Both the position numbers and the translations under genes were made by a program. Under the pieces are notes generated by a model. That model was given only the letters and a program-made list of their open reading frames with translations, ran no database searches and had not been told where the DNA came from. Positions 89 to 21,079 of a stretch of 64,000 bases of DNA are shown piece by piece. Each line of letters begins with the position of its first letter. Positions within the stretch are counted from its first letter, which is position 1. The DNA comes from Jatrophihabitans cynanchi (GTDB lineage Bacteria > Actinomycetota > Actinomycetes > Mycobacteriales > Jatrophihabitantaceae), in NCBI RefSeq assembly GCF_027247405.1, contig NZ_CP097463.1:2728001-2792000 (forward strand), given 5' to 3'.

Positions 89-2062
89 GTGGCAACGCCT
101 GCGGGATTTGAAAACAAGGTCGCGTTCGTATGGAGGATCGCGGACAAGCTGCGCGGTCACCTCAAGCCGCACGAGTACGGGTCGGTGATGCTGCCGACGC
201 TTGTGTTGTTCCGGCTGGACGCGGTCCTGGAGGAGACGAAGCCGCAAGTGCTGGCGAAGGCCACCGGCCTAGACCTGATGTCTCCGGGCGCCGACAAGAT
301 CCTCCGCAAGGTGGCTGGGCAGCCGTTCTACAACACCAGCCCGCTGACGCTGAAGTCGATGCTGTCGGACGACAAGAACATCGCCGCGCAGTTGCGGCAG
401 TACATCGCGGCGTTCAGCCCGGCGGCGACCGAGGTGCTCGACGCCTATCGCTACGACGAGACCATCACCCGACTGGACAAGGCCGGCGTGCTGTACGCCG
501 TGCTCGGCGACTTCGCCGACATCGAACTGCACCCGAACTACGTCTCCAACGAGGCGATGGGCTACATCTTCGAGGAACTCCTCCGGAAGTTCTCGGAAAT
601 GAGCAACGAGACGGCCGGTGAGCACTACACGCCGCGTGAGGTCATCCGGCTCATGGTGGACCTGCTGTTCGCCGAGGACGCCGACGCACTGACCGGCCCG
701 GCGCCGGTGCGCACGCTGTACGACCCGTGCGCAGGCACCAGCGGGATGCTCTCGGTCGCGGCGAACTACCTCACCGAGCTCAACCCGAACGCGCTGCTGG
801 AGGTCTACGGGCAGGAACTGAACCCGGAGACCTGGGCCGTCGCGCGGTCGGAGTTGATGATGCGTGGTGTCGAACCCGACCGCATGGCGCTGGGCAACAG
901 CCTCACCCAGGACGGCTACCCGGGGCTTCGCGCGGACTACCAGCTCACGAACCCACCCTACGGCGTGGACTGGAAGACCTACGCCGACCCGATCAAGACC
1001 GAGGCCACCACGAAGGGGTTCGCCGGCCGCTTCGGCGCCGGCCTGCCCCGGATCAGCGACGGCTCGTTCCTGTTCCTCCAGCACATGATCAGCAAGATGA
1101 AGCCGATTGTCGGCGGCCAAGGTGGATCGCGCATCGCGATCGTGCTGTCCGGCTCGCCGCTCTTCTCCGGCGGCGCTGGGTCCGGGGAGTCGGAGATCCG
1201 GCGCTGGATCATCGAGAACGACTGGCTGGAGGGCATCGTCGGCTTGCCGGATCAGATGTTCTACAACACCGGCATCTCCACCTACGTCTGGATCGTGACC
1301 AACCGCAAGCCGGCCGAGCGGGCCGGCACCGTGACGCTTGTCGACGCCCGGGAGCTCGGCACGAAGATGCGGAAGTCGCTCGGCGACAAGCGAAAGGAGC
1401 TCAGCCCGGACGCGATCAGCGAGATCAGCCGCCTGTTCCGTGATGCGCTCGAACTGGCCGGCTCAGACCCGCGCGTGAAGGTGATGCGCAACGAGGAGTT
1501 CGGCTACGCGCGGCTCACCGTCGAGCGCCAGATGCGTCGGGTCTGGCGGATAGATGACACGACCCTCGTCGAGCTGCCTGGGGACCTTGCAGCCGTGGTC
1601 GACAAGTTGCGCGGCCAAGCTTGGACGACTGAGAAGGCGGCGCGCATCGCCGTGGGCGCGTGCGGGCTGGACACCAAGCAGATCAACACCGTCGTCAAGA
1701 CGATCACGGTCTACGACGCCGAAGCCGAACCGATCAAGGCGAAGAAGGGGCACGGCTTCGAGGCCGACCCCGACCTGCGCGAACAGGAGAACATCGCTCT
1801 TCCCTCGGGGTACCTCGACCTGGGCGAGCAGGAGCGGATCAAGGCCGTTCGGGAGGCTGCTGTGAAGCACCTCGCCGAGGAGATCCACCCGTACGTTCCC
1901 GACGCCTGGATCGACCATGACAAGACGAAGATCGGCTACGAGATTCCGTTTGTCCGCCAGTTCTACGTCTACACCCCACCGCGTCCGGTCGCGGAGATCC
2001 GGGCCGACATCGACGCCCTCGAGCTTCAGGTTCAGCGGTTGATGCAAGGACTAGCAGGATGA
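89..2062 (+). CDS. hsdM: Type I restriction-modification methyltransferase subunit HsdM
   Basis: N6-adenine DNA methyltransferase subunit of a type I R-M complex; with HsdS it methylates the recognition site, and with HsdR it forms the restriction enzyme. The 657-residue product has an HsdM N-terminal helical domain (about residues 10-150), then a Rossmann methyltransferase with SAM-binding motif DPCAGTSG at 212-219 and catalytic NPPY at 288-291. A C-terminal extension of about 150 residues makes it longer than many HsdM proteins. The GTG start is preceded by GGAGGG at 78-83. The stop overlaps the hsdS start as ATGA, so the subunits are translationally coupled. Family assignment is secure; the target sequence cannot be read. 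Confidence 0.96.
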   Translation: MATPAGFENKVAFVWRIADKLRGHLKPHEYGSVMLPTLVLFRLDAVLEETKPQVLAKATGLDLMSPGADKILRKVAGQPFYNTSPLTLKSMLSDDKNIAAQLRQYIAAFSPAATEVLDAYRYDETITRLDKAGVLYAVLGDFADIELHPNYVSNEAMGYIFEELLRKFSEMSNETAGEHYTPREVIRLMVDLLFAEDADALTGPAPVRTLYDPCAGTSGMLSVAANYLTELNPNALLEVYGQELNPETWAVARSELMMRGVEPDRMALGNSLTQDGYPGLRADYQLTNPPYGVDWKTYADPIKTEATTKGFAGRFGAGLPRISDGSFLFLQHMISKMKPIVGGQGGSRIAIVLSGSPLFSGGAGSGESEIRRWIIENDWLEGIVGLPDQMFYNTGISTYVWIVTNRKPAERAGTVTLVDARELGTKMRKSLGDKRKELSPDAISEISRLFRDALELAGSDPRVKVMRNEEFGYARLTVERQMRRVWRIDDTTLVELPGDLAAVVDKLRGQAWTTEKAARIAVGACGLDTKQINTVVKTITVYDAEAEPIKAKKGHGFEADPDLREQENIALPSGYLDLGEQERIKAVREAAVKHLAEEIHPYVPDAWIDHDKTKIGYEIPFVRQFYVYTPPRPVAEIRADIDALELQVQRLMQGLAG

Positions 2063-3306
2063 GTAGTAGACCGGGTTGGCAAGGTATCCCGGCCTCGATC
2101 CCGCAGGTTCCATTCCGGCGTGTCATGACGCGGCTCGACCGGCCGGTACCGGCTGACGCAGAGATCGTCACGGCATACACCGACGGCCAAGTCACTCTCC
2201 GACGTAACCGGGCGAAGATCGGTTACCACGAGGCGACGGATCTCTCTGGGTACCAAGGTGTCGAGGTTGGCGATTTCGTCGTCCACGGTTTGGACATCCT
2301 GCGTGGGTCGGTCGGAGTTTCCGAGTCCCGTGGTGCTATGTCGAGCGTCTGCACAGTCTGTCGGCCGTCACCAGATGTCGATGGTCGATACGTCGCGTAT
2401 GCGATTCGAATGCAGGCAGCCAGCGGCTATACCCGGGCCCTCGCCCGAGGGATCCGCGAAGGCGGCGCTGACTTCAGGCGCTGGGACACCATGGCGGAGC
2501 TCCCGGTGCCTGTGCCACCTGTCGCTGATCAGCGCAGGATCGCGGATTTCCTCGACGACCAGCTCTCTCGCATCGACAAGATTATCGCCGCTCGACGGCA
2601 ACAACTCGATCAACTTGGCGAGTACCTCCAGGCCGCTATAGATGCCGCCTTTCTTCCAGGCCCTGGTGGTGGGGCGCCCGCAGGCCGATTCGTGCGAGTG
2701 CTGTCGGGGTGGGCCTTTCCGAGCGGTAGTTACTCGGCGGATCCCACCGACATCCGCCTGCTGCGAGGCACAAATGTCGGGGTCGGCCTCGTCCGCTGGG
2801 ACGACGTCGTCTACTGGCCAACCGATCGGATGACTGGACTCGCGCCGTTCAGGCTTGCCGACGGTGACATCGTGCTTGGCATGGACAGGCCTTGGATCGG
2901 CGACGGACTGCGTATAGCCCGGTTGACCGCCGAAGACCTACCGTGCCTGCTCTTGCAGCGCGTTGCCAAGCTCACGCCCTCATCGGCAATACGTCCGGCC
3001 TTCGTGTTTTGGGCCTACCGCGCGACTGCCTTTCGCCAGCAGGTGGAGTCCGAGTTGACAGGTCTCGCCGTACCGCATCTCAGCGCAGAGCAGATCTTGT
3101 CGTATCGGCTGCCCATCGCAGACATCGCCGAGCAGGATCGCCTCGTCCGGGGAGTCGAGGAGAAGGCTGGGTGGCAGCGATCGCTGAAGAGCTCGATCGA
3201 ATCCGCGATTCGTCTCGCGGAGGAGTTCAGGCGCTCCTTGATCACGGCGGCGGTAACCGGCGAGTTCGACATCTCGTCAGCGGATGGATCGCGGGTGCCG
3301 GCATGA
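2059..3306 (+). CDS. hsdS: Type I restriction-modification specificity subunit HsdS
   Basis: DNA recognition subunit, 415 residues, with the usual two-half layout: target recognition domain 1 (about 15-150), a central helical spacer (about 153-193, containing ADQRRIADFLDDQLSRID), target recognition domain 2 (about 200-350), and a second spacer helix near the C-terminus (about 355-405, AEQDRLVRGVEEKAG). This predicts a bipartite site with two half-sites. It overlaps hsdM and hsdR by 4 bases each (ATGA), fixing both boundaries. The recognition domains are too variable to predict the sequence. No inverted repeats or second partial hsdS that would indicate phase variation were seen nearby. Confidence 0.95.
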   Translation: MSSRPGWQGIPASIPQVPFRRVMTRLDRPVPADAEIVTAYTDGQVTLRRNRAKIGYHEATDLSGYQGVEVGDFVVHGLDILRGSVGVSESRGAMSSVCTVCRPSPDVDGRYVAYAIRMQAASGYTRALARGIREGGADFRRWDTMAELPVPVPPVADQRRIADFLDDQLSRIDKIIAARRQQLDQLGEYLQAAIDAAFLPGPGGGAPAGRFVRVLSGWAFPSGSYSADPTDIRLLRGTNVGVGLVRWDDVVYWPTDRMTGLAPFRLADGDIVLGMDRPWIGDGLRIARLTAEDLPCLLLQRVAKLTPSSAIRPAFVFWAYRATAFRQQVESELTGLAVPHLSAEQILSYRLPIADIAEQDRLVRGVEEKAGWQRSLKSSIESAIRLAEEFRRSLITAAVTGEFDISSADGSRVPA

Positions 3307-6300
3307 GCAACGTGAGGTCGGAGTCCGCGTTCGAGGCCTCGATCGAGGCGCATCTCCTCGCCAACGGTTGGGACGAGGGCACGGCGGGATACGACGTAGC
3401 GCTGGGCTTGATGCCGATCGAGCTGGCAGCATTCGTCGCAGCGTCGCAGCCGGAGGAGTGGGAGCAGCTGTCCCTGCGCTTGGGCGGCCCGGCAGCCGCG
3501 ACGGCGAAGGTGGCGCAGTACGTCGCCAAGCAGCTCACCGACCGTGGCACCGTCGATGTGCTCCGGCGCGAGACCAAGATGAACGGCGTCGCGTTTCGGG
3601 TGGCGTTCTTCGCGCCGGCGAACGGGCTGACGGCGTCGTTGTGGGAGCGGTACCGCGCGAACCGGCTGACGGTGGTGCGGCAGTTGCATCACAGCGAGTC
3701 GAAGCCGGGCGACTCGCTCGACATGACCCTGTTCGTGAACGGCATCCCGACGGCGACGGCGGAGTTGAAGAACCCGCTCACGCAGCAGACGGTCGCGCAC
3801 GCGATGAAGCAGTACCAGCAGGACCGTAACCCGAACGATCTGATCTTCCGGCACCGGGCGGTGGTGCACTTCGCGGTCGACCCGAATCAGGTGTACATGA
3901 CAACGCGGCTGGCCGGGGACAAGACCCGGTTCCTGCCGTTCAACCAGGGCAGCGGCGGCTCCGGGCAGAAGGGCGGAGCCGGCAACCCAGTGAACCCGGC
4001 CGGCTACGAGACCGCGTACTTATGGGAGCGGGTCTGGCACCCCGACGCCTGGCTCGGTCTACTGGGCGAGTTCGTGCACGTCGAGGACGTCTTCGACGAC
4101 GACGGCAAGAAGACCGGCGAGACCCGCACGCTGTTCCCGCGCTTCCATCAGTGGGATGCGGTGCAGAAGCTGCTGGCCGCGACCCGGGCGGCCGGTCCGG
4201 GAGTGAACCGGCTGGTGCAGCACTCGGCCGGGTCCGGGAAGTCGAACACCATCGCCTGGACCGCACACCACCTGTCGCGGCTGCACACCCCGTCGTTCCA
4301 CGGCGAGCTCACCGACGAGGTGAAGGCGGCCGCGCTCGGCGTTGACCAGCCGATCTTCAACAAGGTCATCGTCATCACCGACCGCGTGGTGCTCGACCGG
4401 CAACTGCAGGCCACCGTGGCCGGGTTCGAGCACACACCAGGCACGATCGTGAAGATCGACGAGGACTCCCAGCAGCTGCGCGCGGCGCTGGCCGGACACA
4501 CCGCCCGCATCATCATCACCACCCTGCAGAAGTTCCCCGTCGTGGCCGAGATGGCTGCCCAGGACGTCGACGGGAACGTCGCCGGCCAGCGGTTCGCGGT
4601 CATCGTCGACGAAGCGCACTCCTCCACCTCGGGCGACGCGATGAAGGACCTGAAGAAGGTCCTCTCGACCGGCGGCGGGGACTCGGTCCTGCTGACCGAG
4701 GAGGAGGCGGCCAACCCGCTGAGCGTCGCGGAGACGGCGGAGGCGAAGGCCGAGGCGGAGACGCCGGACGCCACCGATGTGCTGGCGGCGTCGATGACCG
4801 CGCGCGGCGCGCAGAAGAATCTGGCCTTCTTCGCCTTCACCGCGACGCCGAAGCCCAAGACCCTGGAGCTGTTCGGCGACCTTGCAACGGGGTCGGACGG
4901 CGAGCCGGTGCGGGTGCCGTTCCACCTGTACTCGATGCGGCAGGCGATCGAGGAGGAGTTCATCCTCGACGTGCTGGCCAACTACACCACCTACGACACG
5001 TACTACCGGCTGGCGAACACCGAACCGACCGAGGACCCGGACGTGCCGGTGAGCAAGGCTTCGGCGGCGCTGGCCCGGTTCGTGTCGCTGCACCCGACGA
5101 ACCTGGCGCAGAAGGCGGAGATCATCGTCGAGCACTTCCGGCAGAAGACCGCCGGCAAGATCGGCGGCCGCGCCAAGGCGATGGTGGTCACCCGGTCCCG
5201 GCTGCACGCCGTCCGGTACAAGCAGGCCATCGACGCCTACATCACGAAGAAGCGCTACGACACCGGCCCGAACAAGATCGCCACCCTGGTCGCGTTCTCC
5301 GGCACCGTCACCGACCCGGCCCAGCCGACGGTGGCCTGGACCGAGCCCGGGATGAACGGCTTCGGCGAGGCGCAGCTGCCGAAGCGGTTCGCCAGCGACG
5401 ACTACCAGGTGCTGGTGGTGGCCGAGAAGTACCAGACCGGGTTCGACCAGCCGCTGCTGCACACGATGTACGTGGACAAGAAGCTTGCCGGGGTCAAGGC
5501 GGTGCAGACGCTGTCCCGCTTGAACCGCACCCACCCCGGGAAGGCCGACACGTTCGTGCTGGACTTCGCCAACAGCGCCGAGGAGATCCAGGACGCGTTC
5601 GCGCCGTTCTTCGAGCAGTCCAGCGCGGCGCCTACCGACCCGAACGTGCTGTACGGGTTGGAGCTCACCATCAAGGCGGCGCAGGTCATCCACCCGGACG
5701 AACAAGCAGCGGCCGTGGCGGCGCTGCTGTCCGGGTCCACGGCGAGGCAGAAGGACGTCTACGCCAACCTCAACCCGGCCGCGAACCGGTTTGTCGCCCT
5801 ACCAGAGGACGAGCAGCGGGACAGCTTCCGGCAGGCGCTGAAGTCGTACGTGCGGGCGTACTCGTTCCTGGCCCAGGTCATGCCCTGGACCGACCGCGAC
5901 CTCGAGTCGCTGTACCTCTACGGGCGAGCGCTGCTTCCTCTGCTGCCCACGGCCCCGGACGAGCCGCTCCCGCAGATCAGCGACAGCGTTCTACTCACCC
6001 ATCTGCGGACCGAGGCGCAGGCGCAGGAGGAGAACATCGCGCTCACCACCGGCACCGACGAGCCCGGGGTCGCGTTGCCCGGCGGCGGCATCGGGAAGAA
6101 GTACGAGTCGCCGGTGGAGAAGCTGTCGCAGCTGATCGCGACGCTCAACGACAAGTTCGGAATGAACCTCACCGACGCCGACAAGGTGTGGTTCGAGCAG
6201 CAGAAGCAGGCCGTCAAGGAGAACGAGCACGCCCGCGTCGTCGCGCTGAACAACGACCGCGACCAGTACCGGGTCGTGCTGGAGAAGATCGCCGAAGACG

Positions 6301-6434
6301 CCATCATCGAGCGGCACGAGTCCAACGGGCAGCTGTTCAACGCCTTCTTCGACAAACCCGGCTTCCGGGAGAAGCTGCTGGAGTATCTCGCCGAGTCCTA
6401 CGACGAGATCCGCGAAGAGGGCGAGGCGTCCTGA
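3303..6434 (+). CDS. hsdR: Type I restriction endonuclease / translocase subunit HsdR
   Basis: Motor and nuclease subunit, 1043 residues. The N-terminal nuclease shows D140 and E154-x-K156 (AELKN), the PD-(D/E)xK core. A superfamily 2 helicase follows: Walker A QHSAGSGKS with lysine 313, DEAH at 436-439, FTATPK, and a motif VI-like AVQTLSRLNR. The C-terminal part is the helical subunit-binding region. The open frame extends upstream to 2892 inside hsdS, but the ATG at 3303 overlapping the hsdS stop is the expected start, and the upstream translation has no HsdR character. All catalytic motifs are intact, so restriction is probably functional. Confidence 0.96.
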   Translation: MSNVRSESAFEASIEAHLLANGWDEGTAGYDVALGLMPIELAAFVAASQPEEWEQLSLRLGGPAAATAKVAQYVAKQLTDRGTVDVLRRETKMNGVAFRVAFFAPANGLTASLWERYRANRLTVVRQLHHSESKPGDSLDMTLFVNGIPTATAELKNPLTQQTVAHAMKQYQQDRNPNDLIFRHRAVVHFAVDPNQVYMTTRLAGDKTRFLPFNQGSGGSGQKGGAGNPVNPAGYETAYLWERVWHPDAWLGLLGEFVHVEDVFDDDGKKTGETRTLFPRFHQWDAVQKLLAATRAAGPGVNRLVQHSAGSGKSNTIAWTAHHLSRLHTPSFHGELTDEVKAAALGVDQPIFNKVIVITDRVVLDRQLQATVAGFEHTPGTIVKIDEDSQQLRAALAGHTARIIITTLQKFPVVAEMAAQDVDGNVAGQRFAVIVDEAHSSTSGDAMKDLKKVLSTGGGDSVLLTEEEAANPLSVAETAEAKAEAETPDATDVLAASMTARGAQKNLAFFAFTATPKPKTLELFGDLATGSDGEPVRVPFHLYSMRQAIEEEFILDVLANYTTYDTYYRLANTEPTEDPDVPVSKASAALARFVSLHPTNLAQKAEIIVEHFRQKTAGKIGGRAKAMVVTRSRLHAVRYKQAIDAYITKKRYDTGPNKIATLVAFSGTVTDPAQPTVAWTEPGMNGFGEAQLPKRFASDDYQVLVVAEKYQTGFDQPLLHTMYVDKKLAGVKAVQTLSRLNRTHPGKADTFVLDFANSAEEIQDAFAPFFEQSSAAPTDPNVLYGLELTIKAAQVIHPDEQAAAVAALLSGSTARQKDVYANLNPAANRFVALPEDEQRDSFRQALKSYVRAYSFLAQVMPWTDRDLESLYLYGRALLPLLPTAPDEPLPQISDSVLLTHLRTEAQAQEENIALTTGTDEPGVALPGGGIGKKYESPVEKLSQLIATLNDKFGMNLTDADKVWFEQQKQAVKENEHARVVALNNDRDQYRVVLEKIAEDAIIERHESNGQLFNAFFDKPGFREKLLEYLAESYDEIREEGEAS

Positions 6435-6855: not shown

Positions 6856-7374
6856 ATGGGCAGACTCGACGACGACTGGCTCGCATCGGCTAGCGCCAGT
6901 GACCTGCTTGCCGGATACGCAGCCATCCTGCGAACGTTGCGCGAGCGGGGCGTCGTGCGCTCGGCCAACGCCCCAGTCGGGGACTACGCGGAGCTGCTGG
7001 TGGCTCAAGCGCTGAACGGCGAGCTGGTGGAGAATTTCTCGGTGAAGTCCTACGACCTGGACTGCCCCGAATACCAGCGCGTGCAGGTGAAGGCGCGCCT
7101 GGTCTCGTCGCCCCGGAGATCCGGGCAGCTCCAGACCTCGCCATTCCGCTCCTGGGACTTCGACCACGCTGCCCTGGTGTTGGTCGACGCCGACACCTAC
7201 ATGGTGGAACAGGCGGTCCTGCTGCCAGTCGAGGCGGTGCAGGCCGTCGCGTCGCACCGCTCGCACGTCAACGGCGCGGTGGTGCAGATGAACGCCGCGA
7301 CCATGCAGCACCCGCAGGCGGTGGACATCACCGACCGGATGCGTGCGGCTGCTGCAACGTCCCCCACTTCGTGA
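6856..7374 (+). CDS. PD-(D/E)xK nuclease-like (DUF6998-like) protein
   Basis: A 172-residue protein 30 bases after the preceding gene, likely the last gene of the restriction operon. The region GDYAELLVAQALNGEL (42-57), followed by D67 and the strand QVKAR (77-81), matches the E...D...(Q/E)xK arrangement of restriction-endonuclease-like folds, with E46, D67, Q77 and K79 as candidate active-site residues. This resembles the DUF6998-type family often found near restriction or defence genes. Whether it cleaves DNA, RNA or nothing is unknown. It could be an extra nuclease of the type I system or a separate small defence gene carried beside it. Confidence 0.75.
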   Translation: MGRLDDDWLASASASDLLAGYAAILRTLRERGVVRSANAPVGDYAELLVAQALNGELVENFSVKSYDLDCPEYQRVQVKARLVSSPRRSGQLQTSPFRSWDFDHAALVLVDADTYMVEQAVLLPVEAVQAVASHRSHVNGAVVQMNAATMQHPQAVDITDRMRAAAATSPTS

Positions 7375-12482: not shown

Positions 12483-12633
12483 CCGCAGCGTCGGTCAGCA
12501 ACGTTGGTGATCTCGAGGAGGGGCGGAACAGCAGATCCGCCCCTCCCTCACGTCCGGGAAACGGGGGCGATTGCGCCGGCCGGCGGCCTTCGGACCGGTC
12601 ACGACGTCCCGCACCGACGTCGAAGGCGCAATC

Positions 12634-14607
12634 ATGTCCATCCACCCGTCCTTCACTGCCACGCCGACCGTGGCCACGCCGTCCCCGGTCCTCGCGAAGC
12701 CGGAGAGCACCACCGACCGGACACCCATCGTCCCCGACAGCGCGCGGGAACACGCGCCGAAAGACGCGCGCAGAGCAGGCTTCACCGCGAACAGTCCCGC
12801 AACACCCATCACCGCCGACACCCGGCCCACGCTGCAGCAGTTGACGCTGCCGGGGCCGCGGCGAGATGACGAGGGCCGTGGCGGCGCGATGGCCGGGCTC
12901 AACCTGATGCGGCTGATCATCCGCTGCCCACTGTTGCCGGCCTGGTCGAGCCGCATCATCCGCTCCCGCAAGGGGCGCCCCTCGGGACTGAAGAAGCCCG
13001 ACCTGTTCTGGACCTTCTACCTCCTCGCGACGCGGGAGTTCGGCAGCCACGAACAGCTGGACCAGGAGCTGAAGACCCACTGGTCGGCGATCCGCGACGA
13101 GTTCTGGTTCGAACATGGCGTCCTGCTGCCCGACGCGAAAGCGGACGGGGAGGTGTACGGCTACATGGACTTCAAGAGCTGGCGCAAGCACAACGTCATC
13201 GAGGCCGGCCGGGTCGAGGCGATGCTGCGCCAACTCACCGTTGTCTCGGCGCCGCTGGCCGCCGCCATCCGCGCCGCCGAGGAACCGACCGGCGCCGTGC
13301 GCGACCCGCTGAACCCAATGCCGTGGGACTGCCTGTCCGCCGACGGCACCGTCATGGACACCGCCTCCAGCGTGTACGAGCACAGCTACGTCGACCAGGA
13401 CGGTCACACCGTGAAGAAGATCCAGGGAAGCCGCGCGAAGACAGGCAAGCCCCGGCTGTACCAGCCGACGCGCAACACCGGCCACAAGCGCTCCGGCGGC
13501 GGTCGCGGTCTGTTCAACGTCGCCGCGGTCACCAAGGGCGTCGACACCTACACCCGCGTCGCGCTCGGCGTCGCCATCGGCGACCACACCCAGGGCGAGG
13601 TGCCCATCGCGATGGGCCTGCTCGAGCAGATCTACGACGTGGTCGGCAACCAGTTCCCCGTCCTGCTCTACGACGGCGCGCTCACCCCCGTGTTGTGGCA
13701 CGAGCTCACCCGCCGCTACGGCATCTACTGCGTCAACGCCAACTACGCCCGGCCTCGGCAGAAGGGCGAGCCCGCCTTCGACGCGCCGGACGAGCTCCTC
13801 GGCGCCCCGGCCGGTGCCGGCAAACGGCTCTACGGCCGACGCCGCAACGACCCCAAACGCACCTACATCACCGGGCTGCCACCCGAACGCCACACCGGGC
13901 CGGACGGCCACACCCACCTGCATCACCTGGTCGCCGACGACGGCGGCGTCTACGAGCTCGACCGGGCGTGGCGCCGCAGCGACCCCGGCGTCCGCCAGCA
14001 GCTGCTCGTCCCAACCCGCCTCGAGCGGTTGGTCGACGACCGGGACGAGTACTACTTCGCGGTCACCCTGACCGGAAAGTGCACGCACAGCAGTTTCGAC
14101 GTCACCTTCCACCTGCGCGACCACCAGCCCGAGCCCGGCGGGGAGCTGTCCTGGAAGTCGCAGGTCGCCAACATCCGGATCTTGCCCGAGGCGCTGATCG
14201 AGCGCTACGCGGTCGTGTTCGGTCGCCGCAACCAGATCGAGTCGTTCTTCTCCTGGCTGGAGCAGCGGTTCCGGCACAAGGACCGTCACGCCTCCTACGG
14301 CATCGACTCCGAACGCCTCGACCTCGCCGCCGTCGCCCTGCTCGAGAACGTCCGGGCCTGGGGGCACCTCGCGCTACGCCACCCCCGCCACGCCGAAGCC
14401 CTCGCCGCGCAGCTCGCCGAGATCGCGCACACCACCACCGTGGCCGGCGACTCCCCGCCCACCCCAACGCCCCGGCGCTCGGTCCTGGACGGCAGCCCGT
14501 CCACGCCGATCGTCCGGGCGAGTGTGCCCGTCGGCGTGCCCGTCACGCTGCCTCGTGTCGAGGTGCCCGCAGGCGTCGGAGCGTGGCCTGCCGGTCGGAG
14601 GCAGTAG
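12634..14607 (+). CDS. DDE-transposase-like protein A
   Basis: A 657-residue protein with an RNase H-like transposase core. Candidate catalytic acids are D237 (SADGTVMD), D347 (LLYDGAL) and E536 (RRNQIESFFSWLEQRF), spaced as in IS4-like DDE enzymes with an insertion between the second and third. The first ~85 residues are low-complexity Thr/Pro/Ala. ATG at 12634 follows GAAGG; the frame is open to 12571. The 3' end overlaps the convergent gene 14543-16057 by 65 bases. It shares YDGAL and RN-(x)n-E-x-F with that protein, so the two are divergent relatives. I cannot assign a named IS family. Confidence 0.7.
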   Translation: MSIHPSFTATPTVATPSPVLAKPESTTDRTPIVPDSAREHAPKDARRAGFTANSPATPITADTRPTLQQLTLPGPRRDDEGRGGAMAGLNLMRLIIRCPLLPAWSSRIIRSRKGRPSGLKKPDLFWTFYLLATREFGSHEQLDQELKTHWSAIRDEFWFEHGVLLPDAKADGEVYGYMDFKSWRKHNVIEAGRVEAMLRQLTVVSAPLAAAIRAAEEPTGAVRDPLNPMPWDCLSADGTVMDTASSVYEHSYVDQDGHTVKKIQGSRAKTGKPRLYQPTRNTGHKRSGGGRGLFNVAAVTKGVDTYTRVALGVAIGDHTQGEVPIAMGLLEQIYDVVGNQFPVLLYDGALTPVLWHELTRRYGIYCVNANYARPRQKGEPAFDAPDELLGAPAGAGKRLYGRRRNDPKRTYITGLPPERHTGPDGHTHLHHLVADDGGVYELDRAWRRSDPGVRQQLLVPTRLERLVDDRDEYYFAVTLTGKCTHSSFDVTFHLRDHQPEPGGELSWKSQVANIRILPEALIERYAVVFGRRNQIESFFSWLEQRFRHKDRHASYGIDSERLDLAAVALLENVRAWGHLALRHPRHAEALAAQLAEIAHTTTVAGDSPPTPTPRRSVLDGSPSTPIVRASVPVGVPVTLPRVEVPAGVGAWPAGRRQ

Positions 14608-16057
14608 CGGCGTGGTGGGCGGCCAGGGCGTTATTGAGCAGCCCGTAGCACAGGACGTCGAGCAGCTGCCGGGCCGCGCCCAGGCTCATCGCCCGGTCCA
14701 CCAGCAGGCTGCGCTTGAAGTGGGCGTTGAACGCCTCGGCGTCGTTGCGCAGCCCGTACAACCGGGTGAAGTCCTCCTCGCCCTCGGCGATGACGCGCAC
14801 CGCATCGGCGCGGCGGTGATCCGGGTCCCCGGGTTCGCCGTGCGGGGTCACCCAGGCCAGGAACACTCCCTGCGGGCAGGGGATCTCGTAGGCGACGTTG
14901 AAGTGGTAGCCACCGTGCAACCGGCGGGACCGCTTGACCTGTTTGCGGGGCAGCCGGCTCACCACGACCGGGGTGCCGGCGTCGTCGGTGCCGATCTCAC
15001 TGACCGCACCGTCGACCGCGGCCAGGGTGTGCCGGCAGACGCCGGTTGGGGTGTCGTGTTCCCACTGGCCGAGCGGGTGCCAGCGTGGCGCCGCCGGGGG
15101 TTTCTGCTGGCCGGCGGCGCGCTGCTTACGGCTCCGGGTCTTGCTCGAGGCGTGGACCTTGTTGACCACCAGCAGCCCGCACTCGCGCATCAGCTCGTCG
15201 ATGTGCACCCCGCGCAACGCGCCGTCGTAGACGACGACCTGCATCCCCGCCCCGGCCACCACGTGCAATGCCTTGATGCCGGCCACGGCCGCCTCGGCCT
15301 CGCCGCCGGGGCGTTCGGTCCGATGGACGCCGAGCACGACCCGCTGATGCGCCCGGTCGCCCCGGGCGTAGAGGGCCACGAAGTTCTGCCCGTGGACTGG
15401 GCCGGCGTGGCCGTGGAAGTCGGCGGCGTCCGGGTCGAAGCGGCGCCGCGGCGACGCGATCGGGTTGCCGTCCGGGTCCAGGTACTCGACCTTGGTGAGG
15501 CCGGTGGCCGGGTCGGTGACCCGCCGGGCCGCCGGCGGCCGGTACATCGGCCGCACCACGGTGCCGTCGCCGTAGACGGTGCGGCTGCGGTCCGGGTGGG
15601 TCAGCGACCCGGGCCCGTCCGGCCGCAGCAACCCGAGCTGCCGGGCCTGCTCGACCGCGGCGCGGGTGAACTCCTCCCGCAGCGCGTCCAACACCTCGGG
15701 GTCGGTGAAGTAGTGGTTGCGGGCGTACTTCCACGCGTCCCACCCCGGTGGCACCGGGCCGGCCGGCGAGATCTCCAGCTCCGGGTCCTCCGCCCGCATC
15801 CAGTCGGCGGCGTCGAGGATGAGCTGCCAGGTGCCGGGGTGGCGCAGCTCGTTCTCCACCCGCACCCCCGACCGGTACACCCGGGCCAGCACCCCGTACC
15901 CGAGCAGCACCCACGCCGGGTGCTGCGCCGGCCGGCCGGTGCCCTGCCGCGTCGGCAACAGCGCCGCCAGCCGGTACAGCGCCGGCAGCGAGAACACCGC
16001 CCGGACCTGATCGGCGGTGGTCAGCACCTCGCTGCGCACCGCCCGCAGCTTCCTCAT
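14543..16057 (-). CDS. DDE-transposase-like protein B
   Basis: A 504-residue relative of the protein at 12634-14607, on the opposite strand. Candidate acids are D164 (VYGDGTVV), D278 (VVYDGALRG) and E441 (LRNDAEAFNAHFKR). ATG at 16057 overlaps the stop of the recombinase-like gene 16054-17073 as ATGA, so the pair is translationally coupled. The frame stays open upstream, but the overlap fixes the start. The last 65 bases are antisense to the end of protein A's gene. Coupling of a DDE-like to a recombinase-like gene is unusual and suggests they act together. Confidence 0.7.
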   Translation of the reverse strand: MRKLRAVRSEVLTTADQVRAVFSLPALYRLAALLPTRQGTGRPAQHPAWVLLGYGVLARVYRSGVRVENELRHPGTWQLILDAADWMRAEDPELEISPAGPVPPGWDAWKYARNHYFTDPEVLDALREEFTRAAVEQARQLGLLRPDGPGSLTHPDRSRTVYGDGTVVRPMYRPPAARRVTDPATGLTKVEYLDPDGNPIASPRRRFDPDAADFHGHAGPVHGQNFVALYARGDRAHQRVVLGVHRTERPGGEAEAAVAGIKALHVVAGAGMQVVVYDGALRGVHIDELMRECGLLVVNKVHASSKTRSRKQRAAGQQKPPAAPRWHPLGQWEHDTPTGVCRHTLAAVDGAVSEIGTDDAGTPVVVSRLPRKQVKRSRRLHGGYHFNVAYEIPCPQGVFLAWVTPHGEPGDPDHRRADAVRVIAEGEEDFTRLYGLRNDAEAFNAHFKRSLLVDRAMSLGAARQLLDVLCYGLLNNALAAHHAATASDRQATLRRLRAPRHEAA

Positions 16058-17073
16058 CGGCCCTCCCCTCCCCGGCTGCGGCGACCTCGACCGGTCGCGG
16101 CGGCCCGCCAGTCGAGGCCGATGTCGGTCGCGGCCTCGTCCAGCGACCGGTGCCCGAGCGCCAGCGCCGCCTGCTCGATCGAGCCAGTCCGCTCGTAGAT
16201 GACGCGCCCGGCCCAGTGCCGCACCGACCCCGGCCGCACGTCCGGCTCCCGGCCCAGGCCGGCCTGGTTCAACACCGCCCGCAGCGCCGTGCAGGCGGCC
16301 GCCTGCGCCTTCGCCCCGCCCGGCGGCCGGCGCCCGCCGTAGGCCAGCAGCGTCTGCCCGTCCGCGCCGGCCGCGTGCAGCTCCACCACGCGCCGCGCGA
16401 CGACCGCCCGACCCCACTCGCTCAGCACGCCCACCCTGGGCTCGTGCCGGCGGGTGCCTGGCAGCGCCACCCCGGTCGCTCCGACCCCATGGCGGACGTC
16501 GGCGACCCGCACGGCCGCGATCTCGCTGCTCACCGCGGTCGCTTCGGCCAGCGCCCACACCGTCGCCCGCACCGGTGACCACAGCTGCGGATGCCCGTAC
16601 GCGCTCAACCGGGCCAGGCCGAGCTCGTCGTCGGTCAGCGGCCTGGCGGCCAGCTCGCCGCGCGGCGGCAGCTGCAGGTCGAGCGTCGGGTCGCCGTTCG
16701 CCAGTCCGAGCGCGCGCAGTGACCGGTACAACGCCCGCAGCGCGGTCCGCCGCGCGTGCATCGTCGCCAACTGCGGCGCCCTCCCGGACCCGGTAGCCGC
16801 CCGGACGAACTCCTCCGCCTGCCGCGGCGTCACCGCCGCGAACGACGACGTGCCCCGGAAGGCGAGCCGCTGGGCGAACCGCGACACCGTCTCGCCCATC
16901 CGAAGCTGCGTCTGCTCGGTCAACGCCACCGAACTCGCCCAATGCGCCTGGACCCGCGCGAGCGTCTCCTTCAAATCACACCGTGTGCCGGACGTGTTGC
17001 ACCCCGAACCCGGCGACGCCGTCCTGCTCAGATGGCTGGACACCTCTTGCGTCGACATCACCCGTCGGCCCAT
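16054..17073 (-). CDS. Degenerate tyrosine-recombinase-like protein (copy B)
   Basis: A 339-residue protein with an N-terminal SAM-like core-binding region (about 35-135) and a C-terminal integrase-like domain. Box I reads TAVSSEIAAVRVADV (179-193), with Ser182 where the catalytic Arg should be. Box II reads PGSVRHWAGRVIY, with R285 and H286 present but the first His replaced. LGHRS keeps H308, but Asp317 lies at the nucleophilic Tyr position. ATG at 17073 follows GAAGGGG. It is coupled to the DDE-like gene by ATGA. By these residues it should be catalytically dead and may act in DNA binding or complex architecture. Confidence 0.65.
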   Translation of the reverse strand: MGRRVMSTQEVSSHLSRTASPGSGCNTSGTRCDLKETLARVQAHWASSVALTEQTQLRMGETVSRFAQRLAFRGTSSFAAVTPRQAEEFVRAATGSGRAPQLATMHARRTALRALYRSLRALGLANGDPTLDLQLPPRGELAARPLTDDELGLARLSAYGHPQLWSPVRATVWALAEATAVSSEIAAVRVADVRHGVGATGVALPGTRRHEPRVGVLSEWGRAVVARRVVELHAAGADGQTLLAYGGRRPPGGAKAQAAACTALRAVLNQAGLGREPDVRPGSVRHWAGRVIYERTGSIEQAALALGHRSLDEAATDIGLDWRAAATGRGRRSRGGEGR

Positions 17074-17250: not shown

Positions 17251-17482
17251 ACGGCGGCCTGGCCCTCGGTCGGCGGACGGCGCGAGAAAGGAGGTGATAC
17301 GAGCTCGCCCGGCCCGCGAAACGGGCGCAAAGTCGAACGCCGTTCGCGCCTGAGGTTGCACGCTACTTCGCCGGACTCTAGCTGACCGTCAGCGAGCGCC
17401 GCGGCGACGCAACGACGCGTTTCGCAGCTGCCATCCGCTGAACGGCGTCGTGGGTCGTTGGACACACGTCGCGGATACGGCA

Positions 17483-17507
17483 CTGTAGCTACAGTTAGGC
17501 TACAGTT
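17483..17507. promoter_or_regulatory. Probable operator: 12-bp palindrome and direct repeats
   Basis: CTGTAGCTACAG at 17483-17494 is a perfect palindrome. GCTACAGTT occurs at 17488-17496 and 17499-17507, exactly 11 bases (one helical turn) apart. TAGGCT or TACAGT within it could serve as a -10 hexamer for the gene starting at 17525. It fits a binding site for the HTH protein of the same operon. Confidence 0.55.
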
Positions 17508-17524
17508 GAGCCGATGGAGGAGTT

Positions 17525-18316
17525 GTGCTGACGCTTCCCGCTCCTGACCGCCGCCCCCTGCCAAATGCGGCGTTGTCCCTTGTCGTCACGCAAGTCAGGT
17601 TCGACGCGCGGGCTGACGCGGTGTCCGGAGAGGTCTTGGAGGCCCTTCGCGGCCGCCTGGACGAAGCGGGCCACCGGTACACCCAGATGGACCAGCTATC
17701 AGCTCGCGATCTGATCGTCGGTCCGGCCGGGCCGATCGCGGAGACATCTGCGGTGCGCAAAGGTTGGCGGCTCGCCACGCCCGACAACCGATGGCAGCTG
17801 AGTCTGCTACCTGACTCGCTCTCGGTGGAGACAGCGCAGTTCGAGACGTTCGACGAGATGCTGCCCAGGGTCACGGCTGCACTGGACGCGCTGTCTGGCG
17901 TTGATAGGCCCACGGTGGTTACGCGTGTAGGTCTGCGCTTCATAAACCAACTCGAGTCGCCGCATCCCCTCAGCGGCATTGCGGATTGGCGGCCCTGGTT
18001 GGCGCCGGCGCTGCACGGAGCACTAGCAGATGACACTCTCCGCGACGGCGTCGTGGCCGCCGAACAGCGGATGGTGCTGGCCGTCGATGATTTCGTGCGC
18101 TCCGCTGTACGGTCCGGGCCGCTGGTCCACGACGGTGAGACTGCACGCTATCTACTCGACATCGACAGTTTCGTCGAGATGTCGGAGCTGTGGCGAACCG
18201 TCGACCTTCCAGGATTGATTTCCCGCCTGAACGACGTGAGCGTGTCGGTGTTCCAGCACCTACTATCGCCGAGGATGATCAGCTACCTGCAGGGCCACGA
18301 GGGAGGCGAGTCATGA
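17525..18316 (+). CDS. TIGR04255 family protein
   Basis: A 263-residue protein. The N-terminal PNAALSLVVTQVRFDA stretch and the later VVTRVGLRFINQLE are characteristic of the sporadically distributed TIGR04255 family, whose function is not established to my knowledge. GTG at 17525 follows GGAGG at 17517-17521. Its stop overlaps the next gene's start (ATGA). Being first in an operon with an HTH protein and a Fic-like protein suggests a toxin-antitoxin-like or defence role. Confidence 0.75.
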   Translation: MLTLPAPDRRPLPNAALSLVVTQVRFDARADAVSGEVLEALRGRLDEAGHRYTQMDQLSARDLIVGPAGPIAETSAVRKGWRLATPDNRWQLSLLPDSLSVETAQFETFDEMLPRVTAALDALSGVDRPTVVTRVGLRFINQLESPHPLSGIADWRPWLAPALHGALADDTLRDGVVAAEQRMVLAVDDFVRSAVRSGPLVHDGETARYLLDIDSFVEMSELWRTVDLPGLISRLNDVSVSVFQHLLSPRMISYLQGHEGGES

Positions 18317-18999
18317 GCGTTGCCGAGTTTGTCGACGAGGTGACCGGCGTGCCCACTGACGACCTGTGGACGCCCTACTCCAGCACCGGCCTCCTAGATG
18401 CGCTCCACGGCCGGCACCCCCGGGTGCTCGTCGTGCTCGACCAAACCCTCGAGCAGACCCCGGTGACCCCGTGGCCGCTACGGGCGCGACTCATCTCGGT
18501 GCCCGAGGCGTTATCGGTCGTTCCAGGGGCAAGCGGCGCGCCACCGCACCCAGGGGTTGTGGCGACACGGGAACTTGTGTCGTGGCTTGCTCGACCCCAG
18601 GCGGAGATCCTGCAGCTAGTCGGACTCGCCGAGTCGACTGTTGCGTATTGGCGGAATACGCCAACCGCCGAGATGAAGCCGAACAAGGGCGGTCGACTTC
18701 TCCGACTACACGCCGTGGTAGGGCTTCTCGTGGAGCACTTTGGAGTCGATGCGGTCCGGCGTTGGATGCGCGAGCATTCGTATTTCGACACCCTCGCCCC
18801 GGGTGAGGAGATGGTCGCGACCATCGAACGTGATGGTTACGCACGCCTTCGGACGATGAGGCCGCCGCGTCGGGCAGTATCGGAAGCGGATTGGGACGCC
18901 GCCGAAGCCGCCTGGCACAAGGGCGAGGCCGAGGAGGCTCGCCGGGAGCTGAATGACGGCCAGATCGCCATTGCCCCCGAAGAACCGGCCGCGCGGTAA
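18313..18999 (+). CDS. HTH protein of the TIGR04255-Fic operon, antitoxin-like
   Basis: A 228-residue protein starting at the ATG that overlaps the preceding stop. Residues 86-115 (TRELVSWLARPQAEILQLVGLAEST, in part) form a helix-turn-helix ending in VAYWRN, followed by a helical segment RLLRLHAVVGLLVEHFGVDAVRRWM (129-152, given in part) like Xre-type antitoxins. The C-terminus is helical and charged. Its 3' end overlaps the Fic-like gene by 47 bases. It probably autoregulates through the repeats at 17483-17507 and may neutralise or guide the Fic-like partner; both are inference. Confidence 0.7.
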   Translation: MSVAEFVDEVTGVPTDDLWTPYSSTGLLDALHGRHPRVLVVLDQTLEQTPVTPWPLRARLISVPEALSVVPGASGAPPHPGVVATRELVSWLARPQAEILQLVGLAESTVAYWRNTPTAEMKPNKGGRLLRLHAVVGLLVEHFGVDAVRRWMREHSYFDTLAPGEEMVATIERDGYARLRTMRPPRRAVSEADWDAAEAAWHKGEAEEARRELNDGQIAIAPEEPAAR

Positions 19000-19648
19000 G
19001 CGACCGTCCCGCGGACCCGCTTGGCCGTGGGACGACACGCCGGCGAACGAGAAGCTCATCGCAGCCAACCTCGCGACTGCAAGGAAGGCGGCAACCGCGC
19101 TCGGCCGCGTCGGCAGGCTGCCGACAGCCGACGACGTCCGCGACTGGCACATCGCCGCCCTGTCCGGCGTCCGGGTGGCCGACTCGTCCGTGGTGGGGCG
19201 CTTTCGCGGGGAGGACCCGGGCCCCACGACAGCGGTCGCCTACGTCGGGCTCATGGCCGGCTTGGCTCCGGCCGGGGTGCCGAAGGCAATCCACCGGTTC
19301 TTCCGGCAATTAGCGTCGCGCGTCGACCAGCTCGATCCCCGGCGCGATGAGGACGGAGGGTTGAGCGACGACCTCTACGACGATGTGCTCGACCTTCTAG
19401 CCTGGGTGCATGGGCAGTGGGTTCGAATCCACCCCTTCGTGAACCTCAACGGGAGCACCGCTCGCCTTCTGACGGTCTCGGTCGCCGCGTACTTCGGCCT
19501 ACCGTTGCCGCTGCCCGGGAAGCCCCGCCCCACGAAGACCTTCGGGAGCGGGCTCGGGCTGAGCATCGAGTACGGACACGCCGCTGGGCTGCAGATGGCC
19601 GGAACGGATGAACCGATGCGTCTGTACCTTGCACAACTCCTTGCATGA
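18953..19648 (+). CDS. Fic/DOC-like protein with altered active-site motif
   Basis: A 231-residue protein. Residues 160-171 read HPFVNLNGSTAR, aligning with the Fic motif HPFx(D/E/N)GNGRxxR: the catalytic His160 and Pro-Phe remain, but the first Gly is Leu and the phosphate-binding Arg is Ser. Fic enzymes transfer AMP or other phosphate groups to target proteins; these changes should weaken or change nucleotide handling. No inhibitory (S/T)xxxE(G/N) helix was identified. The start at 18953 lies inside the preceding gene; TTG at 18971 is an alternative. Third gene of the tight operon. Confidence 0.72.
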   Translation: MTARSPLPPKNRPRGKRPSRGPAWPWDDTPANEKLIAANLATARKAATALGRVGRLPTADDVRDWHIAALSGVRVADSSVVGRFRGEDPGPTTAVAYVGLMAGLAPAGVPKAIHRFFRQLASRVDQLDPRRDEDGGLSDDLYDDVLDLLAWVHGQWVRIHPFVNLNGSTARLLTVSVAAYFGLPLPLPGKPRPTKTFGSGLGLSIEYGHAAGLQMAGTDEPMRLYLAQLLA

Positions 19649-20338: not shown

Positions 20339-21079
20339 GTGGATCCAGTCGCTCTCGCTCGAGCGCAAGCCGAGACCTATCGGGTTGCCGCCGATGCTGA
20401 CGAAGCGCTCGTCGTGGGGCCCGGGTGCCCCGACAACGCACGTCTGGGTGAATACCTCAAGGCACTGCGTGTGCAGGCCGGGTTCGCCTCCCGGGCCCAG
20501 GCTGCCGATGCCCTGGGGCTGTCGAGCGAGTACTTGCGGCTCGTCGAGAAGGGTGAACGCACACCCGCCCTCGGGCAGCTGCGCAACTTCTTGACTGTCT
20601 ACAGCGCGGACGGCGCCGTCGAAAAGCCGCTGGCGAACGGTGCGCGCCCGGACCTGGTGCTCTTCAATCCTGCCGACGGTAAGACCGCGGTCGTCGAGTT
20701 CAAAAGCCGCATTCGCGAGGCGCGCCGTCCGGTGGTGCTCGACACGAACGTCATCGCGGAGGGATTGGCGACGTTTGCGGAAGTGCAGAAGCGCCTACTT
20801 GAATCGATCAACCCGGACGGTGCGAGGCAGGGGCTGGCCGTGGTTGCGGCAGCGCAGAAACGCCTACTGGAATCGATCAACCATGACGGTCCCGGGCAGG
20901 GCGAAGTGGTCCCGGCAGAAGCATCGTTCCAGCGCGACGCGCTGATCGGATCGATCGTAGGGCGACTAGCCGTCGCGGACGCCACCACGCTGAAGAAGAT
21001 CGCCGAGCTGCTCGACTCGGTGCAGGCTTCCGCGACAGAGTTGGAGGCCCCGGAGGCAACCCGACCCGGTCCCGCGTGA
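20339..21079 (+). CDS. XRE-type transcriptional regulator with internal duplication
   Basis: A 246-residue protein with a Cro/CI helix-turn-helix at about 36-75 (YLKALRVQAGFASRAQAADALGLSSEYLRLVEKGERTP, in part). The rest has no known domain. A 23-codon tandem duplication (69-base period, units from about 20776 and 20845) gives two copies of AQKRLLESIN-like sequence, with slight divergence. GTG start, leaderless promoter. Probably represses itself and the divergent minigenes through the 20255-20317 inverted repeat. Confidence 0.75.
   Translation: MDPVALARAQAETYRVAADADEALVVGPGCPDNARLGEYLKALRVQAGFASRAQAADALGLSSEYLRLVEKGERTPALGQLRNFLTVYSADGAVEKPLANGARPDLVLFNPADGKTAVVEFKSRIREARRPVVLDTNVIAEGLATFAEVQKRLLESINPDGARQGLAVVAAAQKRLLESINHDGPGQGEVVPAEASFQRDALIGSIVGRLAVADATTLKKIAELLDSVQASATELEAPEATRPGPA

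What the first reader, a model, noticed from the sequence alone, without database searches (positions are those of the whole stretch)
17525..19648. Three-gene TIGR04255-HTH-Fic operon with altered Fic motif
Genes overlap by 4 and 47 bases. The Fic motif is HPFVNLNGSTAR: Gly to Leu and Arg to Ser at nucleotide-binding positions, with the catalytic His kept. TIGR04255 proteins have no settled function. Adjacent to restriction genes, this is a good candidate for a new toxin-antitoxin or abortive-infection system, possibly with a Fic activity other than AMPylation.
Basis: partly seen in the sequence, partly recalled or inferred. Interest (0 to 1): 0.72.

Follow-up and report, generated by a model that had tools for sequence, protein, structure and literature searches.

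The report
Swappable toxin operon with altered Fic
A rare three-gene bacterial operon carries a Fic enzyme with a conserved, unusual active site, and relatives of its first two genes elsewhere sit in front of quite different third genes, including one known toxin, so it looks like a built-for-exchange toxin system of the kind that protects bacteria from phages.

Summary
In detail: three overlapping genes (TIGR04255, a helix-turn-helix protein, Fic) with motif HPFVNLNGSTAR. It is not decay. A genome of the same family (G040) and Nocardioides ferulae carry the same operon with HPFVNINGSTAR and HPFADHNGSTAR; the three Fics form one clade (100/96), whereas all 73 canonical relatives compared keep Gly and Arg there, and 66 of 71 with room have a small RHH-like gene upstream instead. 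All three CTACAGT of the window sit just upstream of the operon; such half-sites recur at both relatives' promoters, suggesting autoregulation. In 63 TIGR04255 loci the third gene varies: an unnamed SQTCDI family (38), RES with its Xre/MbcA/ParS antitoxin (1), HEPN-like (2), Fic (2), none detected (20). Fic operons lie near Wadjet or restriction genes. Best reading: gene 3 is a toxin, gene 2 its antitoxin and repressor, TIGR04255 a sensor or co-regulator of unknown chemistry. The Fic keeps His, Asn, second Gly and Arg2 but lacks Gly1 and Arg1, so canonical AMPylation is doubtful. A Humibacillus operon carries a canonical Fic, so the altered motif is not essential to the context. No activity was measured.

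The parts
17482..17506 (.). operator-like repeat: ACTGTAGCTACAGT palindrome plus a third CTACAGT half-site
   Evidence: all 3 CTACAGT of the 64 kb window lie here; CTGTAGN{0,6}CTACAG occurs at one place in the 4.5 Mb genome (reversed control pattern: 4); half-sites also upstream of the G040 and Nocardioides operons
17516..17522 (+). ribosome-binding site GGAGGAG of gene 1
   Evidence: sequence
17525..18316 (+). gene 1, TIGR04255 family protein (263 aa); presumed sensor or co-regulator
   Evidence: 100.6 bits, cut-off 30; AlphaFold2 pLDDT 84.5
18313..18999 (+). gene 2, helix-turn-helix protein (228 aa), presumed antitoxin and repressor; antitoxin-like stretch about residues 86-157
   Evidence: matches below curated cut-offs; operon relatives
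18953..19648 (+). gene 3, Fic protein (231 aa) with altered motif; presumed toxin
   Evidence: PF02661 30 bits, cut-off 24
19430..19465 (+). Fic motif HPFVNLNGSTAR
89..6434 (+). context: type I restriction-modification hsdM, hsdS, hsdR
6856..7374 (+). context: match to a PADLOC methyl-directed restriction enzyme model (mREase_II)
   Evidence: E 6e-30; no Pfam match at E<=0.001
12571..14607 (+). context: long reading frame that looks like an insertion-sequence transposase
   Evidence: DDE_Tnp_1 E 0.013, below cut-off

Best explanation
A three-gene toxin-antitoxin-like operon. Shown: conserved overlapping gene order, a conserved altered Fic motif, operator-like repeats at the promoter, the same two-gene chassis with different third genes elsewhere, and defence genes nearby. 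Inferred: the third gene is the toxin (Fic here; RES elsewhere); gene 2 is the antitoxin and binds the CTACAGT repeats to repress the operon; TIGR04255 is a sensor or co-inhibitor that lets the complex release the toxin on infection or stress, stopping growth. The Fic keeps the catalytic His, the Asn, the second Gly and Arg2 but lacks Gly1 and Arg1, the arginine that holds the ATP beta-phosphate in AMP transferases; with further changes at positions conserved in its canonical relatives, it probably uses another donor or binding mode, as AnkX and Doc do and as was proposed for EcFicT.
For: Same operon in G040 (Fic 51%, gene 2 44%, TIGR04255 58% identity) and N. ferulae. Motif identical at 9 of 12 positions in all three against 64 of 209 elsewhere (Fisher p 0.003); one clade 100/96; 73 of 73 canonical relatives have G165, R168 and R180 where these have L/I/H, S and Y/Y/L. 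Operator. Third-gene survey: 38 SQTCDI-type, 1 RES, 2 HEPN-like, 2 Fic, 20 none detected, of 63 (the window by direct reading). L137 is TIGR04255 - PF09722 antitoxin (28 bits, cut-off 24.5) - PF08808 RES toxin (51.8, cut-off 23.2). TIGR04255 of four of the five Fic operons is nested with SQTCDI-type ones (12 rows, 8+4, 96/91). Neighbours: Wadjet JetA/C/D matches beside G040's operon, a type IV enzyme about 1 kb from L047's, a type I methylase 5.6 kb from L011's. Role of Arg1: PMC3667792, PMC5033356 (passages).
Against: No toxicity, binding or phage data. Gene 2 fails the curated antitoxin cut-offs and does not align with the L137 antitoxin (a single sequence on that side). No [S/T]xxxE[G/N] inhibitory motif in the 11 operon proteins tested. 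A canonical Fic occurs in the same chassis (L047), so the altered chemistry is not needed there. 20 of 63 TIGR04255 loci show no such third gene (some end at a contig edge). The RES case is a single locus and the HEPN call is below the Pfam cut-off (E 0.048 for one, none for the other). The CTACAGT repeat is missing at L047, and the reversed control of the palindrome pattern occurs 4 times in the genome, so the pattern by itself is merely rare. Gly1 alone can vary: a distant second Fic in L044 reads HPFQDFNGRTIR.
Confidence: 0.55

Rival explanations
1. The altered Fic is a pseudo-enzyme kept as a binding partner: it has lost nucleotide transfer and serves as a regulator or scaffold of the TIGR04255-HTH pair.
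For: Loss of Gly1 and Arg1 and changes at other positions conserved in canonical relatives.
Against: His160, Asn166, Gly167 and Arg171 are identical in all three members, and the motif is more conserved than the rest of the protein.
Confidence: 0.2
2. TIGR04255 is the effector, gene 2 the regulator, and the third gene (Fic, RES, SQTCDI, HEPN-like) an interchangeable sensor or modifier.
For: TIGR04255 is the constant part; Arg134, Gly136, Arg138, Arg196, Asp212 and Asp214 are invariant in 13 members and its model is confident; 11 solo copies of one clade (L122-L132) stand without a detected third gene.
Against: RES is an established toxin family (recalled), present here with an Xre/MbcA/ParS-type antitoxin in positions 3 and 2.
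Confidence: 0.15
3. An autoregulated operon with a housekeeping or metabolic role, found near defence genes because it travels on mobile elements.
For: Integrase beside L011's operon and plasmid or viral carriage of the SQTCDI type; lower G+C at 17-21 kb of the window than upstream.
Against: Patchy distribution; direct contact with Wadjet genes in G040; the RES/Xre variant.
Confidence: 0.15
4. Local decay of an ordinary Fic gene.
For: Two residues invariant in 73 relatives are changed.
Against: Gly1 is also lost and Arg1 is also Ser in two diverged relatives; one supported clade.
Confidence: 0.03

Closest known systems
RES-Xre (MbcTA/ParST-type) toxin-antitoxin systems
   Same: Xre-like antitoxin gene followed by the toxin gene; one TIGR04255 operon (L137) carries such a pair
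   Different: An extra TIGR04255 gene at the front; in the window the toxin place holds a Fic and gene 2 is below the antitoxin cut-offs
FicTA class I (VbhTA, EcFicTA, Fic-1-AntF)
   Same: Fic toxin-like protein with an upstream partner; EcFicT also lacks Arg1 (PMC5033356, passages)
   Different: No [S/T]xxxE[G/N] motif found in any operon protein; two unrelated upstream genes; Gly1 also lost and Ser, not a hydrophobic residue, at Arg1
RHH-like gene + Fic pairs (66 of 71 canonical relatives with upstream room)
   Same: Nearest Fic sequences; overlapping upstream gene
   Different: Canonical GNGR motif, RHH-like upstream gene, no TIGR04255
SoFic anti-phage Fic
   Same: Fic domain; AMPylation-type abortive defence is reported for SoFic (PMC12249575, passages)
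   Different: Single larger gene; only weak model matches here
Doc and AnkX
   Same: Fic proteins with other activities (phosphorylation, phosphocholination; PMC5033356, PMC3667792 passages)
   Different: Different motif changes: AnkX keeps Arg1 and lacks Arg2 (HxFxDANGRxxV, PMC3667792), here Arg2 is kept and Arg1 lost

Membership tests
Fic/DOC family (PF02661) | score over the curated cut-off and catalytic His | tested here: met
   30 bits, cut-off 24; His160
Canonical Fic AMP transferase | HxFx(D/E)GNGRxxR signature | tested here: not met
   HPFVNLNGSTAR; signature from PMC3667792
Class I FicTA | partner with [S/T]xxxE[G/N] inhibitory motif | tested here: not met
   pattern absent from 11 proteins of four operons; a divergent inhibitory helix would be missed
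TIGR04255 | score over the curated cut-off | tested here: met
   100.6 bits, cut-off 30
Xre/MbcA/ParS antitoxin (gene 2) | score over curated cut-offs | tested here: not met
   NF049845 25.9 (cut-off 90), TIGR02293 23.2 (57), PF20432 15.2 (25.8)
Type II toxin-antitoxin | autoregulatory operator upstream of the operon | tested here: inconclusive
   CTACAGT repeats at three of four promoters; binding not shown
Type II toxin-antitoxin | toxicity neutralised by the partner | not testable with these tools
   needs an experiment
SoFic | score over NF046030 cut-off | tested here: not met
   11.6 bits, cut-off 550
PADLOC candidate PDC-S04 | model match over full length | tested here: inconclusive
   24.5 bits, E 4e-6, residues 141-182 only
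McsB/phosphagen kinase fold (gene 1) | clear structural match | tested here: inconclusive
   VIA Z 8.1, rmsd 3.9 over 184 residues; Foldseek no PDB match at E<=0.001
MazF/PemK (SQTCDI family) | profile similarity | tested here: inconclusive
   hhalign probability 4% local, 13% global; structure model pLDDT 49.9, unusable

The most novel reading that the evidence does not exclude
TIGR04255 plus an HTH antitoxin is an undescribed general chassis of three-gene immune operons that accept unrelated toxins (SQTCDI, RES, HEPN-like, Fic), and its altered-motif Fic branch performs a modification other than AMPylation.
Probability: 0.3. Interest if true: 0.82.

Novelty: new variant of a known kind. Interest (0 to 1): 0.62.

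Why it matters
TIGR04255 is a named family for which I found no function in the held papers. Here it is the constant first gene of an operon whose third gene varies, and one variant is a RES/Xre toxin-antitoxin pair, which gives a direct, testable role for TIGR04255 and flags the unnamed SQTCDI family as a possible new toxin. The altered Fic clade is a natural test of what Fic proteins do without Arg1.

Tried and rejected
Decay of the Fic gene: rejected. A fixed TIGR04255-HTH-Fic triad: rejected, 2 of 63 third genes in the samples are Fic. SQTCDI family as MazF/PemK: not supported; as RES relative: hhalign probability 0.2%. Its AlphaFold2 model was too poor to search. TIGR04255 fold: Foldseek in the PDB gave nothing at E<=0.001, VIA gave phosphagen kinases at Z about 7-8 and TBP at about 6, at the edge of what unrelated models reach; among predicted viral proteins seven at E<=0.001, best an unnamed one (E 2e-7), one a TATA-binding protein; no function follows. 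Sequence search of the PDB gave nothing for TIGR04255 or gene 2 and one chance-level row for SQTCDI (E 0.59). Gene 2 against the L137 antitoxin: no match. Plasmid searches with the Fic, with gene 2, with one SQTCDI protein and with one further TIGR04255 protein: none. Viral-contig scans with the Fic, gene 2 and one TIGR04255 protein: none. A phylum sample of 396 genomes gave no Fic of this kind outside the window's genome at E<=1e-8. Papers on TIGR04255 or a tripartite Fic system: none in searches (which asked for at least 4 of 6 terms) and 133 of the held library.

Full report
Observation. Gene 1 is a clear TIGR04255 protein, gene 3 a Fic protein just above the Pfam cut-off, and gene 2 has a helix-turn-helix that resembles RES/Xre-type antitoxins below the curated cut-offs. 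The Fic motif is HPFVNLNGSTAR. The type I restriction genes are in the window (89-6434) but end about 11 kb away.

Is the motif decay? Of 397 genomes sampled from the order, six have a Fic match at E<=0.001. Besides the window's own, only G040, of the same family, has a close one (E 1e-65); it carries the same three genes with HPFVNINGSTAR. The next, G201 (E 1.5e-20), is canonical and has no TIGR04255. A phylum sample of 396 genomes gave only the window's own at E<=1e-8. A pattern-based scan of 84,980 species genomes (478 pattern matches, 115 relatives, best 80 kept; others may lack the two short patterns used) found the operon again in Nocardioides ferulae (HPFADHNGSTAR) and, with an ISL3-type element inside the Fic gene, in Humibacillus xanthopallidus. 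Their TIGR04255 genes are called by similarity to the window's and by my own profile. The three altered Fics are one clade (100/96; motif columns were not left out of the tree). Nine of 12 motif positions are identical in all three against 64 of 209 elsewhere. All 73 canonical relatives compared have Gly165, Arg168 and Arg180; the three have L/I/H, S and Y/Y/L, with further changes such as Trp173 to Leu. His160, Asn166, Gly167 and Arg171 stay. Most simply, the motif changed once and was then conserved.

Results against a tight link. The Humibacillus Fic in the same chassis keeps HPFANGNGRTAR, and a Planctomycetota MAG (L090) has TIGR04255 (by my profile, E 7e-16), a 129-residue protein without a Pfam match, and a canonical Fic (HPFVNGNGRTSR). 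The altered motif is therefore not required by the context. L090 is a very long branch in both trees. A distant second Fic in L044 has HPFQDFNGRTIR, so Gly1 can also vary elsewhere.

Ancestral state. The canonical relatives are a different system: 66 of 71 loci with at least 250 bases upstream have a small gene there that matches one common profile; it looks like a ribbon-helix-helix antitoxin, but of three tested Pfam gives RHH_3 only below cut-off for two and not for the third. None of L011, L047 and L090 has it.

The chassis. TIGR04255 genes were collected from three overlapping samples (31 of 397 genomes at E<=1e-4; 31 of 396 and 21 of 355 at E<=1e-10) and all 71 distinct places were fetched or already in hand. 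My own profile recognises 63 of the 71, counting the window. Third genes on the same strand: SQTCDI-type 38 (L184 and L193 weak), RES 1, HEPN-like 2, Fic 2, none detected 20 (the window by direct reading; the SQTCDI, RES and HEPN-like profiles were seeded from these loci). Four SQTCDI members have no match in Pfam, PADLOC or NCBIfam. An SQTCDI-type gene also follows on four of four plasmids with a TIGR04255 hit (Kocuria, Sinorhizobium, Chroococcidiopsis, Sphingomonas) and on three viral contigs, two of which were found through the third gene. In L137 positions 2 and 3 are an Xre/MbcA/ParS antitoxin and a RES toxin, both over their cut-offs. In L183 and L199 the third gene looks like HEPN, but Pfam gives only E 0.048 for one and nothing for the other. 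In the TIGR04255 tree four of the five Fic-type genes fall in a set with eight SQTCDI-type ones (96/91), the three altered-motif ones as a clade (100/99), and the Fic label needs three changes, at least two forced by starred branches. I read this as exchange of the third gene on a fixed pair.

Regulation. Upstream of the window operon stands ACTGTAGCTACAGT followed by another CTACAGT. These are the only three CTACAGT in 64 kb (1.2 expected; 16 of 100 shuffles reach three anywhere, but here all lie within 25 bases). CTGTAGN{0,6}CTACAG is absent from 100 shuffles of the window and occurs at one place in the whole genome, against 4 for the reversed control pattern, so it is rare but not beyond chance in 4.5 Mb; its place is what counts. 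G040 has two direct copies of CTACAGT and N. ferulae an inverted pair CTGTAG-N5-CTACAG, both ending 18 bases before the start codon; the direct tandem form was found, among 255 fetched loci, only in those of the window and G040. Humibacillus lacks it. An operator for gene 2 is the natural reading but binding was not shown.

Neighbourhood. G040: the operon lies directly upstream, on the same strand, of genes matching Wadjet JetA3, JetC3 and JetD3; the gene in the JetB place had no match. L047: about 1 kb from a gene matching a type IV restriction enzyme model (1155 bits). L011: beside a phage-type integrase, with a type I methylase 5.6 kb on. The window: type I restriction genes, an mREase_II match and transposase-like frames; G+C is 64.5-68.7% at 17-21 kb, 70-76% at 10-17 kb, 68% at 21-23 kb and 72-74% beyond.

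Structure. The TIGR04255 model is confident (pLDDT 84.5, pTM 0.84, seven sequences). Residues invariant in the seven include Arg134, Gly136, Arg138, Asp212 and Asp214; Arg196 is invariant in a 13-member set. Matches to phosphagen kinases and McsB reach Z 8.1, which the tool warns may be only a common arrangement. A nucleotide- or phosphate-binding role is a lead, no more.

Chemistry. In AMP-transferring Fic proteins Arg1 makes a salt bridge to the beta-phosphate, Arg2 to the gamma-phosphate, Asn contacts the alpha-phosphate, and backbone amides form the anion nest (PMC3667792, passages). [quoted passage not shown] The window's Fic lacks Arg1 and Gly1 and keeps the rest, so I expect weakened or different donor use. 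This is inference.

Verdict. A real, conserved, rare variant of a modular toxin-antitoxin-like operon, probably for defence. The modular TIGR04255 chassis seems to be undescribed: full-text searches for TIGR04255, for tripartite toxin-antitoxin with Fic, and for papers holding at least four of six RES/MbcA/Fic/defence terms found none, in a library that lacks most subscription journals and preprints. Papers seen: passages of PMC3667792, PMC5033356 and PMC12249575; listing and start of abstract only for PMC13327609 (Fic-1-AntF) and PMC8401265. The names MbcTA and ParST, and RES as an established toxin, are recalled.

Noticed in passing
L134:6138-6923 and L252:6620-7567: TIR-domain genes (PDC-S66/ThsB-like in L134) follow TIGR04255-HTH operons.
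   Followed up: partly
L122-L132: Solo TIGR04255 genes in one family of the order, in one supported clade; in several of them a reading frame of about 300 residues lies next to it on the opposite strand.
   Followed up: no
L149:5499-6380, L154:7439-8275, L155:7375-8292 and others: Unnamed protein family with QGD...[ST]Q.CD[IL] near the N-terminus; no match in Pfam, NCBIfam or PADLOC for the four tested.
   Followed up: partly
L183:3046-3429 and L199:3084-3464: HEPN-like genes in third position behind TIGR04255.
   Followed up: partly
L156:8477-9610: A separate larger Fic gene lies about 0.5 kb behind a TIGR04255-HTH-SQTCDI operon on a Sphingomonas plasmid.
   Followed up: no
L044:2602-3333: A distant second Fic with motif HPFQDFNGRTIR (Gly1 replaced, Arg1 kept) in the Spartobacteria MAG.
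   Followed up: no
L047:6544-7878: ISL3-family transposase inserted in the Fic gene of the Humibacillus operon.
   Followed up: yes
window 20339-21079: Another HTH protein about 0.7 kb behind the operon, same strand; relation unknown.
   Followed up: no
window 14543-17073: Two long reading frames on the minus strand that look to me like a transposase and a recombinase but have no Pfam match at E<=0.001.
   Followed up: partly
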